From the NCBI RefSeq assembly GCF_023062595.1, contig NZ_JALLAN010000002.1, positions 252,099-316,098 on the forward strand: 64,000 bases of DNA. The letters are read 5' to 3'. A program made the translations under genes and the position numbers. This document shows, piece by piece, positions 1,718 to 56,033 of this stretch (position 1 is its first letter; every line of letters starts with the position of its first letter). The notes beneath the pieces are model-generated. The model was not told the origin of the DNA. It ran no database searches and saw only the letters and a list, made by a program, of their open reading frames with translations. This stretch comes from Arthrobacter rhizosphaerae (GTDB lineage Bacteria > Actinomycetota > Actinomycetes > Actinomycetales > Micrococcaceae).

Positions 1718-3823
1718 GTGAGCAAGCTTTCCTGGGGAAACCCACACTTCACACTCAACTTCGAGTGGGATTCCAAGCAACCGATTTGCCTGACCGGGGT
1801 TTCAGGCGACGAGGCGGAACTGGTCATTGATCACCCGATGCCGGCAGTGGAGATTCTCACTGCGGCCGGCGGCCACGTTGCCGCTTCGGATAGGTTGTCC
1901 CACACAACTGTCGGAGCCGACCTCAGGTACGTTTCGCACAAGGCCCTGGACATCGCCGGCGGAACCGCATTAAGGATTCTGCTCCGCTCGGAACGCTACT
2001 CGCTTGAAGCCGCCGCGGACTTTGAAATGCTCAATGGCGTTGCAGCCGTTCGGTCCGCCGTGACTGTCACCAATACCGGTACCGGGGACGTAGTGCTGCA
2101 GGCGGTGCCGTCGTGGTCCGCAGGCTTCGGCATCAGGCCGGGTACCGGCGTCGAGGATTCCTTCGGCTCCTGGGAGCGGATCTCGGGAACCAGCGACTGG
2201 CTTGGCGAGGGACGGTGGGAGCGCAACAGCCTGCGGGGCAGTGACTTCCCCGAACTGGGCGAGGATTGGACGGGCCACAATCCCCGCGGGGCAATGACGG
2301 TGGTGTCGACGGGTGCCTGGTCAACCGGGAAGAACCTTCCGGTCGCCGCGCTGGAATCGCGAGACTTCGCCGCCTCCTGGGCGTGGCAGATCGAACACAA
2401 CGGCGCCTGGCGCTGGGAGATCGGCGAGGACACCGCCGGCGGGTACTTCACGTTGTCAGGGCCTACCGACCGGGACTCTTCCTGGACGAAAGTCCTCGCC
2501 CCCGGTGCGTCGTTTACATCGGTGCCCGCCACAGTGGCTTTCTCCAGCGACTTCGCCGGGGCCATGGGCGAACTCACCCGCTTCCGCCGCTCTGCCCGCC
2601 GGGAGCACTTGGACAACAGCACCCTCGGCGCCGTCTTCAACGACTATATGAACACCCTCAATGGCGACCCCACCACCGAGAAACTCCTTCCACTTATCAC
2701 CGCGGCTGCCGAGGTGGGCGCGGAAATCTTCTGCATCGACGCCGGCTGGTACGACGACAGCGGCCACTGGTGGGACAGCGTGGGGGAATGGCTGCCGTCC
2801 ACCACCCGCTTCCCCGGAGGGCTGGAACTTGTGGTCCACGCCATTAAGGACGCCGGGCTGGTTCCCGGACTCTGGTTGGAGCCGGAGGTAGTGGGGGTAC
2901 GCAGCCCTCTTGCGCAGGTGCTGCCGGACGAGGCATTCCTGCAAAGGCACGGGCAGCGGCTGGTTGAACACGGCCGGTACCACCTGGACCTTCGTCACCC
3001 TGCTGCAGTCAGTCACCTGGACGCGGTCGTCGACCGGCTGGTCAAGGATTTCGGCATTGGCTTCTTCAAGTTGGACTACAACATTGACCCTGGCGCCGGG
3101 ACAGACCACAACTCCGACAGCCTCGGGGATGGGCTCCTGGAGCACAACCGGGCGCATCTACAGTGGCTGGACCGGATGCTGGACAGGCATCCAGGCCTGG
3201 TCATTGAAAACTGTTCTTCGGGCGCCATGCGGACGGACTTCGCGATCCTGTCGCGGCTGGCCATGCAGTCCACCTCGGATCAGCAGGATTTCCTCAAATA
3301 TCCGCCCATCGCTGCAGCCGCACCACTCTCCATGCTTCCGGAGCAGGCCGCGAACTGGGCGTACCCCCAACCGGAAATGAGCAGGGAAGAAGTAGCTTTC
3401 TGCCTTGCCACCGGTTTGCTGGGCCGGTTCTACCTCTCGGGGTACCTGAACCGGATGCCCCAGCAGTCACTTGAACTCGTCCGCGAAGCAGTGGTTGCCT
3501 CTAAGACCCTGCGCGCTGACATCAGTACCTCGCGACCCTACTGGCCTGCCGGGCTCCCCGCCTGGACGGATCCCTGGGTTGCGCTGGGACTTCGATCCGA
3601 TGCATCAGATCTTCTCACCCTCTGGAATCGCGGCACCATGGCTGAGACTCAGCTCGCCATCCCGCATCTGGCAGGGCGGAAGGTTCGGATCGAAACCGTA
3701 TTCCCCGTTGACCTCCCCCAATGGGAGACCACCTGGGATCCAACAGAAGGAACGCTCACCGTTGCCGCCACCACAGGCATTTCGGCCCGCACCTTCCGCC
3801 TCACTCCGGACGGTCCGGCCTGA
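1718..3823 (+). CDS. Alpha-galactosidase, GH36
   Basis: This enzyme hydrolyses terminal alpha-galactosides such as melibiose and raffinose-family sugars. The protein is about 701 aa, usual for a bacterial GH36, and has no signal peptide, so it acts in the cytoplasm on imported oligosaccharides. The GH36 landmarks are WLEPEVVG, DLRHP, the nucleophile Asp in FFKLDYN near residue 453, and the acid/base Asp in CSSGAMRTD near residue 507. I chose the GTG at 1718 because CGAGGAG lies 4 bases upstream; an in-frame GTG at 1691 lacks this. It is the first gene of a cluster with a sugar ABC importer and a LacI regulator, and two AGCGCT-type operators precede it. Confidence 0.93.
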   Translation: MSKLSWGNPHFTLNFEWDSKQPICLTGVSGDEAELVIDHPMPAVEILTAAGGHVAASDRLSHTTVGADLRYVSHKALDIAGGTALRILLRSERYSLEAAADFEMLNGVAAVRSAVTVTNTGTGDVVLQAVPSWSAGFGIRPGTGVEDSFGSWERISGTSDWLGEGRWERNSLRGSDFPELGEDWTGHNPRGAMTVVSTGAWSTGKNLPVAALESRDFAASWAWQIEHNGAWRWEIGEDTAGGYFTLSGPTDRDSSWTKVLAPGASFTSVPATVAFSSDFAGAMGELTRFRRSARREHLDNSTLGAVFNDYMNTLNGDPTTEKLLPLITAAAEVGAEIFCIDAGWYDDSGHWWDSVGEWLPSTTRFPGGLELVVHAIKDAGLVPGLWLEPEVVGVRSPLAQVLPDEAFLQRHGQRLVEHGRYHLDLRHPAAVSHLDAVVDRLVKDFGIGFFKLDYNIDPGAGTDHNSDSLGDGLLEHNRAHLQWLDRMLDRHPGLVIENCSSGAMRTDFAILSRLAMQSTSDQQDFLKYPPIAAAAPLSMLPEQAANWAYPQPEMSREEVAFCLATGLLGRFYLSGYLNRMPQQSLELVREAVVASKTLRADISTSRPYWPAGLPAWTDPWVALGLRSDASDLLTLWNRGTMAETQLAIPHLAGRKVRIETVFPVDLPQWETTWDPTEGTLTVAATTGISARTFRLTPDGPA

Positions 3824-3895
3824 GAAACCTGCATTACCCCGCGGCCGTTCGCGGATAAGCGGATAATCCGTATACAAGAACAAGGAGCAGTTTCA

Positions 3896-5209
3896 ATGAA
3901 GAAAGCCCTCAAAGTCGCCGCAGTTCTGGCGACCGCAGCATCTTTCGTGCTGACGGGATGCAGTGACCCCGGATCAGGAAGCCAGAACAACAGTCCCGCT
4001 GCCTGGCCTGCCGCCGATACCGATCTTAAAGGCACTAAGCTGACCGTCTGGGCAGCCCAGAACTCAAATAAGGTTCCGGACAGCGTCGTCGCAGGTTTTG
4101 AGAAGTTGACCGGCGCTGAGATCAACGTGGTCACCATTCCTGACCCGTACGAACAGGGCGTCCAGACCAAAGTGGCAACCGGTGACAAGCCGGACCTCGC
4201 CTTTTGGCAGCCCACAGGATCCCAGCTCACGGCCCTGAACGCCACCACAAACCTTCAGTCGCTCGAAGGCGCACCCTGGCTTGATTCGACAAAGCCGGCG
4301 CTGAAAGACATTACCGGGATCCTGGACAAGACCCGTTATGCGGCTCTCATCAGCACTCCCGCCGTCGAAGGCGTTTACTACAACAAGGAAGTCTTCGAAA
4401 AAGCCGGCATCAAGAGCGTGCCGGCAGACTGGGACTCCTTCATCAAACTGGGCCGTGACCTCAAGGGCCAGGGTGTAACCCCCTTCTACGAAATGGGAGG
4501 CGACCGCTGGGCGACCCAGTGGTGGGTCCAGGTTCAGCTTGCTGATGCTGCCAAGGACGGCCTGTGGGACCGAGTCAACACGAACAAGGAAAAGTTCACT
4601 GACCCCACCATCCAGGGCGCCATCAACACCTACAACGACCTCATCAAGGAAGGCCTGTTCAACGAGGACATCAAGACCGCAACCTTCGAGGACCAAGGTG
4701 CGGCGCTGCTCTCCGGAAAAGCCGCCATGGCCGTCCAGGTCAACTCCTTCTTCTCCCAGCTGCAGGCACAATCGGACACCGAAACGCTCAACAAGAAGAT
4801 CGGATTCTTCCCGATTGCCCCGAGCGGCAACGTTGGTACCTTCATCCCGGACCAGAGCAATGCTTTGGTGGCTTTCAAGACCGGTGACGCCAAGCGTGAA
4901 GCCGCATCCCGTCAGCTGCTGAGCTACTGGCTCGGCCAGGGCTACGGTGATTTCGTCACCGCGCAGTCGACCGTCTCACTTCAGGACGCAGTCAAGACCC
5001 CGGGAACTGTTCCCAATGCGTTGCTGGCCGTCAGCGATTCCTTGGGTACGTCCGTGGGATCCATGCAGGCCGAAGCCATCGCCAACCCCGACCTGTACAT
5101 CTTCCTCGCAGACATGATCCAGGGAACCAAGACGCCTGAAGAAGTAGCGAAGGCGACCCAGGACCAGTTCGCTGAGCTGGCCAAGGCTCAAGGCGCTGCC
5201 GGTTTCTAA
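3896..5209 (+). CDS. Sugar ABC importer, substrate-binding lipoprotein
   Basis: This is an extracellular solute-binding protein of the family 1 (MalE-like) type, 437 aa. It has a lipoprotein signal: positive N-terminus, hydrophobic core and VLTGC with lipidated Cys22. An AAGGAG-type Shine-Dalgarno precedes the ATG. It follows the alpha-galactosidase by 72 bases and precedes two permease genes, so alpha-galactosides are the likely ligand, an inference from context. A strong hairpin at 5241-5265 separates it from the permease genes, a common way to keep the binding protein more abundant than the membrane parts. Confidence 0.92.
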   Translation: MKKALKVAAVLATAASFVLTGCSDPGSGSQNNSPAAWPAADTDLKGTKLTVWAAQNSNKVPDSVVAGFEKLTGAEINVVTIPDPYEQGVQTKVATGDKPDLAFWQPTGSQLTALNATTNLQSLEGAPWLDSTKPALKDITGILDKTRYAALISTPAVEGVYYNKEVFEKAGIKSVPADWDSFIKLGRDLKGQGVTPFYEMGGDRWATQWWVQVQLADAAKDGLWDRVNTNKEKFTDPTIQGAINTYNDLIKEGLFNEDIKTATFEDQGAALLSGKAAMAVQVNSFFSQLQAQSDTETLNKKIGFFPIAPSGNVGTFIPDQSNALVAFKTGDAKREAASRQLLSYWLGQGYGDFVTAQSTVSLQDAVKTPGTVPNALLAVSDSLGTSVGSMQAEAIANPDLYIFLADMIQGTKTPEEVAKATQDQFAELAKAQGAAGF

Positions 5210-5240
5210 CCGGCAGCCGGTATCTCTAACCCACTGAGGG

Positions 5241-5265
5241 AGTGCCGGGCATTATGCCCGGCACT
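5241..5265 (+). terminator. Intercistronic hairpin between binding-protein and permease genes
   Basis: AGTGCCGGGCA and TGCCCGGCACT form a perfect 11-bp stem with a 3-base TTA loop, 32 bases after the binding-protein stop. There is no T-run after it, so partial termination or 3'-end protection of the upstream message is more likely than full termination. Confidence 0.7.
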
Positions 5266-5286
5266 CCGCTCCAGAAAGGACCAGAC

Positions 5287-6219
5287 GTGACCGCAGTCAT
5301 GTCCCGCCAGGACGTCGTCCGCGTCGAAGATATCCGCAAGGCCAAGCGGCGGGGAGGGAAGAACGACCACCCCCTGTGGTTCCTGATCCCTGCCCTTGCA
5401 GTCCTTGTTGTCTTCTTCTTCATTCCCACCCTGTTCAACTTCATCTATGCCTTTACCAACTGGTCCAGCTTCAAGTCATCCATCGGCTTCGTCGGGGTGG
5501 ATAACTTCGTCACCCTTTTCAACAGCGGAACCCTGCTTAACGCACTGCGCGTCACGCTGATATACGCCGTGCTGGTGGCCGTTTTCCAGAACCTCTTCGG
5601 GCTGATCCTGGCCCTGCTGCTGGAACGGGACACACGAGTGAACAGGGCAGTGCGGGTGGCGTTCTTCATCCCCGTGATTATGTCCGCCCTCGCCGTCGGC
5701 TACATCTTCCAGGCGCTCCTGAAACCAGAAGGCGCCCTCAACGGCATCCTTGGCTTCATTACCGGGACCGACGTCACCATTCCCTGGCTCGGAGACACCA
5801 CGTGGACCATCGTCGTCGTCGCCTTGGTTCACTCCTGGAAGTGGATGGGACTCTCGATGCTGATCTACCTGGCCGGGCTGAAAACCATCAACGACGACGT
5901 GCTCGAGGCCGCAAGGCTCGACGGCGCCTCCTGGTGGACCACCCTCCGGGAGATCCGCTTCCCACTCTTGGCACCTGCCGTCACGTTCAATGTGGCCACA
6001 GCACTGCTGGGTTCAATGAACGGGTTCGACGTCGTCCAGGCCACCACCGAGGGTGGCCCCGGCGGCTCCACCGAGCTCCTAAACATCTTCATCTTCCGCA
6101 CCTTCGGCCAGGGGCTCTTTGCCCAGGCCACCACCATGAGCCTTGTGTTGTTCCTCGCGGTTGCCGTCCTGGCGTTCCCGCTGATTAAGATGCTTCGCAA
6201 GCGAGAGGACGTACTGTGA
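5287..6219 (+). CDS. Sugar ABC importer permease, MalF type
   Basis: This inner-membrane permease of about 310 aa has six or so hydrophobic segments and the EAA loop EAARLDGASWWTTLREI, which docks the ATPase. The chosen GTG at 5287 has AAAGGA 6 bases upstream; an ATG at 5299 is the alternative. The frame is open further upstream but would run through the hairpin. It pairs with the next gene by a 4-base overlap. No ATPase gene is present in the cluster, so a shared MsiK-type ATPase elsewhere in the genome is expected. Confidence 0.92.
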   Translation: MTAVMSRQDVVRVEDIRKAKRRGGKNDHPLWFLIPALAVLVVFFFIPTLFNFIYAFTNWSSFKSSIGFVGVDNFVTLFNSGTLLNALRVTLIYAVLVAVFQNLFGLILALLLERDTRVNRAVRVAFFIPVIMSALAVGYIFQALLKPEGALNGILGFITGTDVTIPWLGDTTWTIVVVALVHSWKWMGLSMLIYLAGLKTINDDVLEAARLDGASWWTTLREIRFPLLAPAVTFNVATALLGSMNGFDVVQATTEGGPGGSTELLNIFIFRTFGQGLFAQATTMSLVLFLAVAVLAFPLIKMLRKREDVL

Positions 6220-53566: not shown

Positions 53567-53752
53567 ATGAAGATGTCTGTGGCAATGGGCGTGGTACTCA
53601 TCCTCCTCGGCCTGGTTTCCTTGGCGGCCATGATCGGCACGGTCGTCCTGGTGATCCGTGACGGCCGGGGGCAGACTCCTGTGGAGCCTTCCGTTCGGCC
53701 TTGGACGGCGGGGAATCTTCCCAGCCGGCCGTATTCCACCATCCGCTTGTAG
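53567..53752 (+). CDS. Small single-pass membrane protein, 61 aa
   Basis: The ATG at 53567 has GAGG close upstream. One transmembrane helix (about residues 5-30) is followed by a hydrophilic tail (RDGRGQTPVEPSVRPW). It lies 51 bases before the aminotransferase-fold gene in the same orientation. The function is unknown. Confidence 0.6.
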   Translation: MKMSVAMGVVLILLGLVSLAAMIGTVVLVIRDGRGQTPVEPSVRPWTAGNLPSRPYSTIRL

Positions 53753-53803: not shown

Positions 53804-54976
53804 ATGAGATCCCGGCCCAACCGGCTGCACCATGTAGCCGGATTCAGCATCGACAAAGTAGCCGCGGCGGCAGGCGAGGACCCCAACATCCTCAGATTGG
53901 AAAATCTTGACACCGACCTCCTCCCGCCGCTGGCCGCAATAGAGGCAACCCGGGCGGCAGTCGGATTGGATTCCGCCAACTCATACCTTCCCTTCACCGG
54001 ACAGCTTGCTGCCAAACAGGCGGTAGCCGGGCAAATAGCCGAGCGGACCGGCATCACTTATGACCCGTCGTCGGAAGTGATCCTGACGTGCAGTGACGGG
54101 GACTGTCTGCTTGACTCACTCCTGGGGCTGACCGATCCAGGAGACGAAATCCTGCTGACGGACCCGACCTATGCGGGCATGCTGAATCGCGTGCACTTGG
54201 CCGGAGGTGTGCCGCGCCTGGTGCCGATGAGGGTATCCGGGGGCGCATGGCGGATGGATCTTGAGGCGATGGAGGCCGCCGTCTCACCCCGGACACGAGC
54301 CGTTTTCCTGCAGAATCCATCCTTCCCTTCGGGTTACCGGCTCAGCGACGAGGAGTGGTCCGCCGTCGCCCGCCTCTGTGCGGAAAAAGACCTGTGGCTC
54401 ATCTACTGGTCACTGATGGAAGGCATCGTATTCGACGGCCAGCCAATCCTCAGTCCGGCGTCCTACCCGGGAATGCGCGAACGCACCATCATCGTGGGCA
54501 CGGCCTCCATCGAGCAGCGGATGATCGGCTGGCGCATTGGCTGGATCGTGGCACCGGCTGAAGTCATGTCCGATCTCGCCGTCGTCCACATCTATAACGG
54601 CCTTACTCCTGGCGGAATTGCGCAGGCGGGCTTGATTGCAGCGCTGAAAGACGGCGACGGCGGTCTGGCGCAGTGCGTTGCGGAGTGGCAGCGGCGCCGG
54701 GATGCCCTCACCGCTGCCCTCGACGGTTTTGCCATGATTCCGGCCGCCGACGGTTGGTCCCAGATCCTGGACACTGTAAGTCACGGCGTCGATCCCGGGG
54801 AACTCTCGCGCGTCCTGTTGCACCACGGTGTGGCCGCCACGGCCATGACGGGCTGGGGCGGGGAAGTTGCCAACCGCCATCTCCGTCTCGTGTTCAGTAA
54901 CGAGCCAGTGGAAAGGATCGAACTGGTCGGTGATCGTTTCAGGGCTGCGATGCGCGAAGCGGGTGGCAGGGTCTAG
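53804..54976 (+). CDS. Aminotransferase-fold protein lacking the PLP lysine
   Basis: This intact 390-aa class I/II aminotransferase-like protein aligns well with the family: YLPFTG near 61-66, DPTY near 120-123, NPSFPSG at 171-177, ERTIIVG and MIGWRIGWIVAP around 226-251, and Arg361 in HLRLVFS. Three key positions differ. The Schiff-base Lys (SKxxxMTGWR) is Ile236 in TASIEQRMIGWR. The Asp that holds the PLP ring nitrogen is Trp202 and the nearby Tyr is Met205 (IYWSLMEG in place of the usual SDExYEG). It cannot be a normal transaminase. The absence of frameshifts or stops argues for a maintained pseudoenzyme or a new activity. It is preceded by a small membrane-protein gene and convergent with an unknown membrane-protein gene. 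Confidence 0.85.
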   Translation: MRSRPNRLHHVAGFSIDKVAAAAGEDPNILRLENLDTDLLPPLAAIEATRAAVGLDSANSYLPFTGQLAAKQAVAGQIAERTGITYDPSSEVILTCSDGDCLLDSLLGLTDPGDEILLTDPTYAGMLNRVHLAGGVPRLVPMRVSGGAWRMDLEAMEAAVSPRTRAVFLQNPSFPSGYRLSDEEWSAVARLCAEKDLWLIYWSLMEGIVFDGQPILSPASYPGMRERTIIVGTASIEQRMIGWRIGWIVAPAEVMSDLAVVHIYNGLTPGGIAQAGLIAALKDGDGGLAQCVAEWQRRRDALTAALDGFAMIPAADGWSQILDTVSHGVDPGELSRVLLHHGVAATAMTGWGGEVANRHLRLVFSNEPVERIELVGDRFRAAMREAGGRV

Positions 54977-54989
54977 CCGATCCTGCGCG

Positions 54990-56033
54990 TCAGGCAGACT
55001 GCCGGGCCAAGTACTTCTCGAGGCTGGCAATGTTCACTTTTTCCGGGTAGACGTCGCGCCGCTCCATGTACTTCAGAATCGCAGCGGACTTCCCCGCGTG
55101 GTCCAGGGTGACTATTGCGAGCGGTGACGTCATGCTCATGGATGTGACCTGGGTGTAGACCGCGCGGCTGATGGCGGCCCGCCGCTGGGCATTGGACATC
55201 ATGCCCCACAGCGTTCGCGCCGTGAGAAGGTAGGCACCGTACGCCACTCGCAGCAGTTCGCTGATGCGTTCCTCTGAATAATGTTCCACACCCTCGTTGG
55301 CGAGACTTAGCCCGGGGCGAAGATGCAGGGCAACGTGGACGCTGCGCAGCACCCCTGCGGCCGCCCCGGCGGTAGAGCTGCTGGTCGCCTCCAGCCGTTC
55401 GCCGTCAAAGATGTTCCGGAAGGTCAGGAAGTCGAGCTTGATGGTACTGGGGACGGCGGCCCAGGAATGGAGAAAGTACGCCAGATCATCCTCAGGCCGC
55501 AGGTTGGTTGCCAACGCCTCGAGGACTGGAAGCGGCTCCCGTTCGAGTGCCGCGCACATGTCCGTGAACAACTTCCTGGTGTCCTCCGCGCCCGGGGGCA
55601 ATGACCGGCGCACGCGCTCCTGCAGGCCAACGAGCAGTGTCCGACGGCGTTCCTCATCTCCGCGCGGAAGCGCGTTTCCCAGGGCCAGTTGCCTCCGAAA
55701 GGATTCCAGGGCATGTTCGCCGTGCAGGGGCTGCCCGGCTGCGGGCCCGTTGGACTGCCCGAGCAACTTGCCGAATGGAGGTGGCATGACGGTCCTGTTC
55801 AGGGCGGGTGCCGCCACGAACTGCAACAGCGCAATAAACCATGTCATCAGCGCCGCAACCACCAGACTTGCCAGGATTCCAGCCGGGCCCCACAAGCGCC
55901 ACAGGAGCGGCCAGAGGACGTAGACATTCACCGCGAAGATAGCGGCCGCGAACATCCGTTGCCAGTTGGTGCGCAGCAGGCGCCTGCTGAACTGTGGTGC
56001 GTCTGCGATTGGCCAGCTCAATGTTTCCCCCAA
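54990..56033 (-). CDS. Unknown membrane-anchored protein, 347 aa
   Basis: Two N-terminal transmembrane helices (about residues 28-46 and 50-72) are followed by a soluble part of about 270 residues rich in helices and Arg. The C-terminus includes IVTLDHAGKSAAILKYMERRDVYP. I recognise no domain. The start at 56033 has no strong Shine-Dalgarno. It is convergent with the aminotransferase-fold gene, 13 bases apart. Confidence 0.7.
   Translation of the reverse strand: MGETLSWPIADAPQFSRRLLRTNWQRMFAAAIFAVNVYVLWPLLWRLWGPAGILASLVVAALMTWFIALLQFVAAPALNRTVMPPPFGKLLGQSNGPAAGQPLHGEHALESFRRQLALGNALPRGDEERRRTLLVGLQERVRRSLPPGAEDTRKLFTDMCAALEREPLPVLEALATNLRPEDDLAYFLHSWAAVPSTIKLDFLTFRNIFDGERLEATSSSTAGAAAGVLRSVHVALHLRPGLSLANEGVEHYSEERISELLRVAYGAYLLTARTLWGMMSNAQRRAAISRAVYTQVTSMSMTSPLAIVTLDHAGKSAAILKYMERRDVYPEKVNIASLEKYLARQSA

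What the first reader, a model, noticed from the sequence alone, without database searches (positions are those of the whole stretch)
53804..54976. Intact aminotransferase-fold gene without the PLP lysine, ring-nitrogen Asp or Tyr
The protein follows the class I aminotransferase pattern closely, including GWRIGW, ERT and the C-terminal Arg. The lysine that forms the Schiff base is Ile236 (codon ATC), the Asp that binds the pyridine nitrogen is Trp202, and the Tyr three residues later is Met205. Three linked losses in an otherwise clean 390-codon frame suggest a maintained pseudoenzyme (regulator, scaffold or binding protein) or an unknown reaction, possibly with the small membrane protein encoded just upstream.
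Basis: partly seen in the sequence, partly recalled or inferred. Interest (0 to 1): 0.8.

Follow-up and report, generated by a model that had tools for sequence, protein, structure and literature searches.

The report
Aminotransferase-like protein without its cofactor site
A soil bacterium carries an intact, selectively maintained gene whose protein looks like an amino-acid-processing enzyme but, together with its close relatives, has replaced the parts that hold the vitamin B6 cofactor, so it probably does something else, most likely bind an amino-acid-like molecule.

Summary
The 390-codon gene at 53804-54976 is intact, and Ile236, Trp202 and Met205 replace the PLP lysine, ring-nitrogen Asp and Tyr of class I aminotransferases. 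It is neither an error nor a lone decaying copy: 22 of 83 aligned family rows (window included) lack the lysine and lie on one side of a single branch, even in a tree without active-site columns (support 97/92). Selection is strong (omega 0.06-0.13 within Arthrobacter, up to 0.29 with Agromyces and Sinomonas); the predicted fold is normal (pLDDT 93.4). The losses look stepwise: 61 of 61 Lys-bearing rows already lack the cofactor Asn and Tyr, and 48 of 61 have Asn for Asp. The Lys-less rows also remade the phosphate cup (97-100) but kept carboxylate Arg361, Tyr123 and Arg244. It appears to be a stand-alone, patchily distributed gene; a link to the small membrane protein is not supported. Most likely it is a PLP-free protein that binds an amino-acid-like carboxylate; new PLP-independent chemistry is not excluded. 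Function is inferred, not shown.

The parts
53804..54976 (+). Lys-less class I aminotransferase-fold protein, 390 aa
53793..53796 (+). GAGG ribosome-binding-like sequence, 7 nt before the ATG
   Evidence: sequence read directly
54092..54103 (+). Former PLP-phosphate cup, Ser97-Asp98-Gly99-Asp100. In the 22 Lys-less rows: 98 Glu 13, Asp 8, Gln 1; 99 Gly 22; 100 Asp 22. In the 61 Lys-bearing rows: Gly or Ala at 98 in 61, Thr at 99 in 48, Glu at 100 in 48
   Evidence: that this loop binds the phosphate is recalled
54323..54325 (+). Phe174 where 2o0r and 6f35 have Asn (the PLP-O3' Asn, recalled); Phe in 18 of 22 Lys-less rows
54407..54409 (+). Trp202 (TGG) at the ring-nitrogen Asp position; Trp 19, Leu 3 of 22 Lys-less rows
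54416..54418 (+). Met205 (ATG) at the Tyr position; Met 10, Phe 9, Tyr 3 of 22 Lys-less rows; Met 57 of 61 Lys-bearing rows
54509..54511 (+). Ile236 (ATC) at the Schiff-base Lys position; Leu 8, Ile 5, Phe 3, Met 2, Trp 2, Ala 1, Val 1 in the 22 Lys-less rows
54533..54535 (+). Arg244, position of the phosphate-contacting Arg (recalled), kept in 22 of 22 Lys-less rows
54884..54886 (+). Arg361, position of the substrate alpha-carboxylate Arg (recalled), kept in 22 of 22 and 61 of 61 rows

Best explanation
A class I (fold type I) aminotransferase-fold protein that belongs to a whole clade which gave up Schiff-base PLP chemistry (this part about 0.93) and is kept by selection. Most likely it is a stand-alone, probably homodimeric protein that binds an amino-acid-like carboxylate in the retained substrate half of the old site (Arg361, Tyr123, Asn59/Ser60, Trp243). 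The cofactor half would be filled with hydrophobic side chains (Phe174, Trp202, Met205, Ile236), and the phosphate cup closed by acidic residues (Asp98, Asp100) that may pair with Arg244. It would act as a sensor or sequestering protein rather than a transaminase. Shown: the residue losses, their clustering on one branch, purifying selection, a confident predicted fold, conservation of the substrate-side residues. Inferred: no bound PLP, the filled pocket, homodimer, ligand, role.
For: The 22 rows without Lys and the 61 with it fall on two sides of one branch of a tree built without active-site columns, support 97/92, one change in 96% of 200 bootstrap trees. Omega 0.060-0.130, median 0.086, over 21 pairs of Lys-less genes within the genus, against median 0.129 over 36 pairs of Lys-bearing Arthrobacter relatives; no sign of relaxation, though the Lys-less pairs are more diverged and 14 of 21 have dS of 1.5 or more. 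Within-group identity is similar (median 0.59 against 0.56). The sharpest between-group shifts include 98, 99, 100, 170, 174, 178, 202, 204, 207, 236, 238 and 266, many of them cofactor-cradle positions. Arg361, Tyr123, Asn59, Ser60, Trp243 and Tyr264 are at least 97% conserved in both groups. No invariant or nearly invariant Lys in the 16-row clade alignment. Model pLDDT 93.4, pTM 0.92; 1gd9 at Z 49.3, rmsd 2.2 over 381 residues. No partner gene recurs across 17 Lys-less loci and the window or in further loci.
Against: No direct evidence of any ligand, of lack of PLP, or of dimerisation; model coordinates could not be inspected, so pocket filling is argued from the alignment alone. Arg244 is kept in 22 of 22 and could still hold a phosphate. 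A single gene under selection that sits in varied places fits a self-sufficient enzyme as well as a binding protein. The acidic residues at 98/100 and His359 (21 of 22) could be catalytic. Omega rises to 0.286 when Agromyces and Sinomonas copies are included (36 pairs).
Confidence: 0.5

Rival explanations
1. A PLP-independent enzyme: the cofactor site was rebuilt into a new catalytic site (acidic residues at 98/100, His359, Gln238) that acts on the same kind of substrate.
For: Gly99 and Asp100 are invariant, 98 is acidic in 21 of 22 Lys-less rows, His359 in 21 of 22 and Gln238 in 17 of 22, all different in most Lys-bearing rows. The gene stands alone and is patchily distributed.
Against: My searches turned up no catalyst of this fold that works without the lysine (open-access papers only). 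Which of these residues face each other was not seen in coordinates.
Confidence: 0.27
2. A catalytically dead subunit or regulator that pairs with a working aminotransferase, as LCB1 does with LCB2 in serine palmitoyltransferase.
For: Fold type I active sites lie at subunit interfaces (recalled); LCB1 is a known Lys-less precedent (PMC3794620 passages).
Against: The genome has no Lys-bearing member of the same family; the next hits share 30% identity or less. No aminotransferase gene recurs beside it in 17 Lys-less loci and the window, several with short flanks; L036 has two class-III-like aminotransferase genes nearby, an isolated case. Among 198 same-genus genomes the Lys-less form (7) and the Lys-bearing form (14) never co-occur, though chance would give only about 0.5 overlaps.
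Confidence: 0.1
3. It still binds PLP, PMP or another B6 vitamer without a Schiff base, as carrier, sensor or half-transaminase.
For: Arg244 in 22 of 22; Ser or Thr at 233 in 14 of 22. Pyridoxamine:pyruvate and PMP:ketoglutarate aminotransferases, described as PLP-independent, use B6 vitamers as substrates (PMC9309667 passages).
Against: Acidic residue at 98 in 21 of 22 and Gly for Thr at 99; Trp or Leu at the ring-nitrogen position and mostly Phe at the O3' position.
Confidence: 0.1
4. A decaying gene or a sequencing error.
For: Three catalytic residues are missing.
Against: 22 rows on one side of one branch, omega 0.06-0.13 within the genus, intact frames in the 22.
Confidence: 0.01

Closest known systems
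Lys-bearing sister family (I found no characterised member; two annotated plasmid records call it PLP-dependent aminotransferase)
   Same: 45-61% identity between the groups; same LRLENLDTD, NSYLPFTG, TDPTYAGM and MIGWR motifs; same Arg361; Tyr and cofactor Asn already replaced in 61 of 61
   Different: Keeps Lys in 61 of 61; Asn (48) or Asp (13) at the ring-nitrogen position; Gly or Ala at 98, mostly Thr-Glu at 99-100
Class I aminotransferases of known structure: 1gd9 (Pyrococcus), 2o0r (M. tuberculosis Rv0858c)
   Same: Fold: Z 49.3 and 48.4, rmsd 2.2 and 2.4
   Different: 25% and 29% identity; at the aligned columns they have Lys, Asp, Tyr and Asn
LCB1 subunit of serine palmitoyltransferase
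   Same: Homologue of a fold type I PLP enzyme without the PLP lysine (PMC3794620 passages; PMC2748086 passage)
   Different: LCB1 pairs with catalytic LCB2; here no same-family partner was found in the genome
GntC, L-enduracididine cyclase
   Same: NF041364 hits 27 of 27 members of A2, up to E 2.4e-70, but so do 20 other NCBIfam models among the 25 shown; GntC K219/R227/R346 correspond to columns 236/244/361 by my reading of the motif spacing
   Different: P0001 scores 171 bits against the cut-off of 415 and lacks the lysine that GntC uses (PMC10367076 passages)

Membership tests
Pfam Aminotran_1_2 (class I/II aminotransferase fold) | Profile match above the gathering score | tested here: met
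   110.2 bits against cut-off 19.7
Class I aminotransferase fold (fold type I) | Same fold as solved members | tested here: met
   AF2 model pLDDT 93.4; 1gd9 Z 49.3, rmsd 2.2, 381 aligned
PLP-dependent class I aminotransferases | Schiff-base lysine | tested here: not met
   Ile236 in the window protein; 22 of 83 family rows lack Lys there
PLP-dependent class I aminotransferases | Asp at the pyridine nitrogen | tested here: not met
   Trp202; Trp 19, Leu 3 of 22 Lys-less rows
PLP-dependent class I aminotransferases | Tyr and Asn to PLP O3' | tested here: not met
   Met205 and Phe174 in the window protein; among the 22 Lys-less rows 3 have Tyr at 205, none has Asn at 174
PLP-dependent class I aminotransferases | Substrate alpha-carboxylate Arg | tested here: met
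   Arg361, 22 of 22
PLP-dependent class I aminotransferases | Bound PLP and transaminase activity | not testable with these tools
   Needs purified protein
NCBIfam equivalogs (for example PRK07777, GntC) | Score above the curated cut-off | tested here: not met
   The best 25 of 52 hits were shown, all below their cut-offs (top 183.9 against 553)
LCB1-type dead subunit | Homologous catalytic partner in the genome | tested here: inconclusive
   No Lys-bearing member of this family in G000; pairing with a distant aminotransferase of the genome was not tested

The most novel reading that the evidence does not exclude
A lineage of aminotransferase-fold proteins that passed step by step (Tyr and Asn, then Asp, then Lys) from PLP catalysis to a rebuilt, PLP-free catalytic site acting on the same class of carboxylate substrates, with the intermediates still alive in sister bacteria.
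Probability: 0.25. Interest if true: 0.85.

Novelty: new variant of a known kind. Interest (0 to 1): 0.6.

Why it matters
PLP enzymes are textbook examples of dependence on one lysine. A maintained bacterial clade that lost the lysine and remade the cofactor cradle, beside living relatives at what look like intermediate stages, would let the route from PLP enzyme to PLP-free protein be tested directly. The two annotated relatives I saw are called plain PLP-dependent aminotransferases although they also lack some cofactor residues, and the B6 database discarded sequences lacking the PLP lysine, rare exceptions apart (PMC2748086 passage), so such clades are easily hidden.

Tried and rejected
Operon logic: gene calls on 80 relative loci plus the window. 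Apart from near-copies, no neighbour family is shared by more than a few Lys-less loci; the widest is an ABC ATPase in L012, L014 and the window, and other clusters pair two loci (for example 46, 47, 50, 51). Flanks are short in L009, L016, L017, L020 and L024. The first caller seemed to pick antisense ORFs and was replaced by a codon-usage caller. Link with the small membrane protein: not supported. Arginine-metabolism link: suggested by GntC as a leading NCBIfam hit, by a Lrp/AsnC regulator, DDAH-like and class III aminotransferase group beside L036, and by arginase two genes from L035; only these 2 loci among those I read point that way, so I did not build on it. Viral contigs: 35 pattern matches, none a relative. 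Plasmid records: 11 matches, one read as Lys-less (Arthrobacter sp. StoSoilB13, 79.7%); of the other ten I read three, all with Lys. Alternative Schiff-base lysine: Lys71 in 19 of 22 stands where 58 of 61 Lys-bearing rows have Arg; I judge it structural because it lies in the L-R-x-A helix common in aminotransferases (recalled), but this is not proven. Second structure job not used. Literature: searches (open-access PMC only) showed me no description of a Lys-less class I aminotransferase clade; absence there is weak evidence.

Limits of the counts: the search for related loci kept the best 80 of 87 relatives and searched with patterns from the window protein, so 22 to 61 is not a prevalence. 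The genome search drew genomes evenly from larger groups and scored only part of the candidates, so its counts may be low. Rows dropped before the tree counts: L030, L066, L078, L086 and L087 (in-frame stop, insertion, partial or frameshift); four of the five show Lys and L087 is unreadable. L089, L094-L099, L101-L104, L107 and L108 were left out as copies or near copies. L016 and L017 are identical, so the 22 rows are 21 distinct proteins. One search read minus-strand loci on the wrong strand; one search corrected it. One row disturbs the simple order of losses: L075 has Asp but lies inside the Asn-bearing group.

Full report
WHAT IS THERE. The ORF 53804-54976 (+) is a clean 390-codon frame with an ATG and a GAGG 7 nt upstream. 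It matches Pfam Aminotran_1_2. phmmer alignments to solved aminotransferases 2o0r and 6f35 place Ile236, Trp202, Met205 and Phe174 opposite the Lys, Asp, Tyr and Asn of those enzymes. That these four positions contact PLP is established knowledge of aspartate aminotransferase (recalled; Lys258, Asp222, Tyr225, Asn194 in pig numbering).

IT IS A CLADE. A scan of genome contigs kept 80 of 87 relatives and the genus scan found more: 7 of 198 same-genus genomes, the window's included, carry a homologue at 73% identity or more, and 14 of 198 a relative at 48-52%. The genus is Arthrobacter by my reading, since contigs of G061 and G191 have the lengths of named Arthrobacter contigs. In an alignment of 83 rows, 22 lack the lysine (Leu 8, Ile 5, Phe 3, Met 2, Trp 2, Ala 1, Val 1). 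On trees built without active-site columns these 22 rows are one side of a single branch: SH-aLRT 96 in the quick tree, and bootstrap/SH-aLRT 97/92 in a careful tree that also leaves out columns 96-101 and 168-179. With six other aminotransferases of these genomes as outgroup and all columns, support is 98 and the Lys-less clade nests inside the Lys-bearing family (long outgroup branches make the root unsure). Members are Arthrobacter, Agromyces, Sinomonas, Lentzea, and MAGs labelled Actinobacteria, Solirubrobacterales, Nitriliruptorales, Chloroflexi, Dormiibacterota and Zixiibacteriota (labels as given).

IT IS MAINTAINED. NG86 omega over 21 pairs of Lys-less Arthrobacter genes is 0.060-0.130, median 0.086, below the median 0.129 of 36 Lys-bearing Arthrobacter pairs. 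14 of the 21 Lys-less pairs have dS of 1.5 or more; the other 7 give a median of 0.084. With Agromyces and Sinomonas copies added, 36 pairs reach up to 0.286. Identity within the clade (median 0.59) is not lower than within the Lys-bearing group (0.56). GC of the gene (0.633) is close to the window's (0.626).

THE LOSSES LOOK STEPWISE. In the 61 Lys-bearing rows the Tyr position is Met (57), Leu (2) or Phe (2), the Asn position is Met (46), Ile (13) or Thr (2), and the Asp position is Asn in 48 and Asp in 13. Twelve of the 13 Asp-bearing rows are the Myxococcota pair and the Paraburkholderia/Arthrobacter branch, which lie outside the branch (support 88) that joins the Lys-less clade to the Asn-bearing group (support 85) when the tree is rooted by the paralogues. 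The thirteenth, L075, lies inside the Asn-bearing group, so Asp and Asn have changed more than once or back. The likely order is Tyr and Asn first, then Asp, then Lys together with Trp at the Asp position; the root is not firm. Further relatives read later, L120 and L133-L138, all keep Lys, while L119, L121 and L132 are Lys-less and repeat L036, L012 and L092 or nearly so.

THE COFACTOR SITE WAS REBUILT. The strongest between-group shifts include 98 (Gly/Ala to Glu/Asp), 99 (mostly Thr to Gly), 100 (mostly Glu to Asp), 170 (Met to Asn/Gln), 174 (Met/Ile to Phe), 178 (Ala/His/Gly to Trp/Tyr), 202, 204, 207 (Arg to Gly), 236, 238 (Tyr to Gln), 266 (to Gly), 350 (to Gly) and 359 (to His) (shifts elsewhere, such as 71, 79, 81, 331 and 374, are listed there too). 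Columns 97-99 align with the phosphate-binding loop of aminotransferases (alignment; loop recalled). Substrate-side residues remain: Arg361 (22 of 22 and 61 of 61), Tyr123, Asn59, Ser60, Trp243, Tyr264; Arg244 also remains in 22 of 22. My reading, not seen in coordinates, is that hydrophobic side chains fill the ring site, the acidic cup replaces the phosphate, and the carboxylate end still binds a ligand. No lysine is invariant that could take over; Lys71 (19 of 22) is the only frequent one besides position 342 (11 of 22).

FOLD. The AF2 model from 59 family rows has pLDDT 93.4 and pTM 0.92. Best solved matches: 1gd9 Z 49.3, rmsd 2.2, 381 aligned; 2o0r Z 48.4. Nothing in the fold is unusual.

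SURROUNDINGS. In the window the gene is flanked by an NrtR-like NUDIX regulator, a small membrane ORF, a convergent gene without Pfam match, and a sugar cluster. Orthologues in other genomes of the genus lie beside different genes, one on a 1-Mb record deposited as a plasmid, and presence is patchy: 1 of 15 genomes of what I read as Sinomonas, 7 of 198 in the genus; in the phylum draw 3 of 396 genomes, the window's own included, matched any family member at E 1e-90, and 2 of these are Lys-less. This fits a self-sufficient gene that moves horizontally (inferred) and argues against an operon partner. The small membrane protein is adjacent in 4 of 7 Lys-less genomes and has homologues in 9 of 12 genomes without the gene.

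VERDICT. The firm part is loss of the PLP-Lys machinery across a selected clade. The role is inferred: a carboxylate-binding PLP-free protein is my first choice, PLP-free catalysis the main rival. Fold type I relatives without the PLP lysine are known in LCB1 of serine palmitoyltransferase (PMC3794620 passages), so this is a new variant of a known kind, unusual in being bacterial, apparently stand-alone, and flanked by living relatives that look like intermediates.

Noticed in passing
L045, L047, L062, L063, L065, L085 (about 3650-6200 in each locus): In 6 of 6 of these loci of Lys-bearing Arthrobacter relatives the gene starts 31 nt after a same-strand pair of sigma-factor-like and anti-sigma-like genes; Pfam was run on L045 only (Sigma70_r2/r4 and zf-HC2). 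I saw no such pair beside the Lys-less genes.
   Followed up: partly
L070 6290-6835 and L074 6200-6727: Myxococcota Lys-bearing relatives have an ECF sigma-like gene convergent just downstream (Pfam run on the L070 copy only).
   Followed up: partly
L036 1835-4518: Beside a Lys-less gene: Lrp/AsnC regulator, DDAH-like hydrolase and class III aminotransferase, a possible arginine or ornithine route.
   Followed up: partly
L014 6199-7185 and L027 1914-2900: Two Lys-less loci have a gene of the same cluster (47) near by that reads to me like a threonine/serine dehydratase; no family search was run on it.
   Followed up: no
L135 1407-7164: In Variovorax a Lys-bearing family member ends a same-strand run with a dihydrodipicolinate-synthase-family gene, a class V aminotransferase, a tripartite transporter protein and an enolase-like gene.
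   Followed up: no
window 54990-56033 (-): Convergent 347-aa ORF with hydrophobic stretches near its N-terminus and no Pfam match at E 0.001.
   Followed up: no
window 53567-53752 (+): 61-aa membrane-type ORF; homologues in 16 of 19 same-genus genomes searched, up to four per genome.
   Followed up: partly
L030, L066 and L107: Three Lys-bearing relatives carry an in-frame stop inside the gene (near residues 191, 328 and 200), so some copies outside the Lys-less clade may be decaying or mis-sequenced.
   Followed up: no
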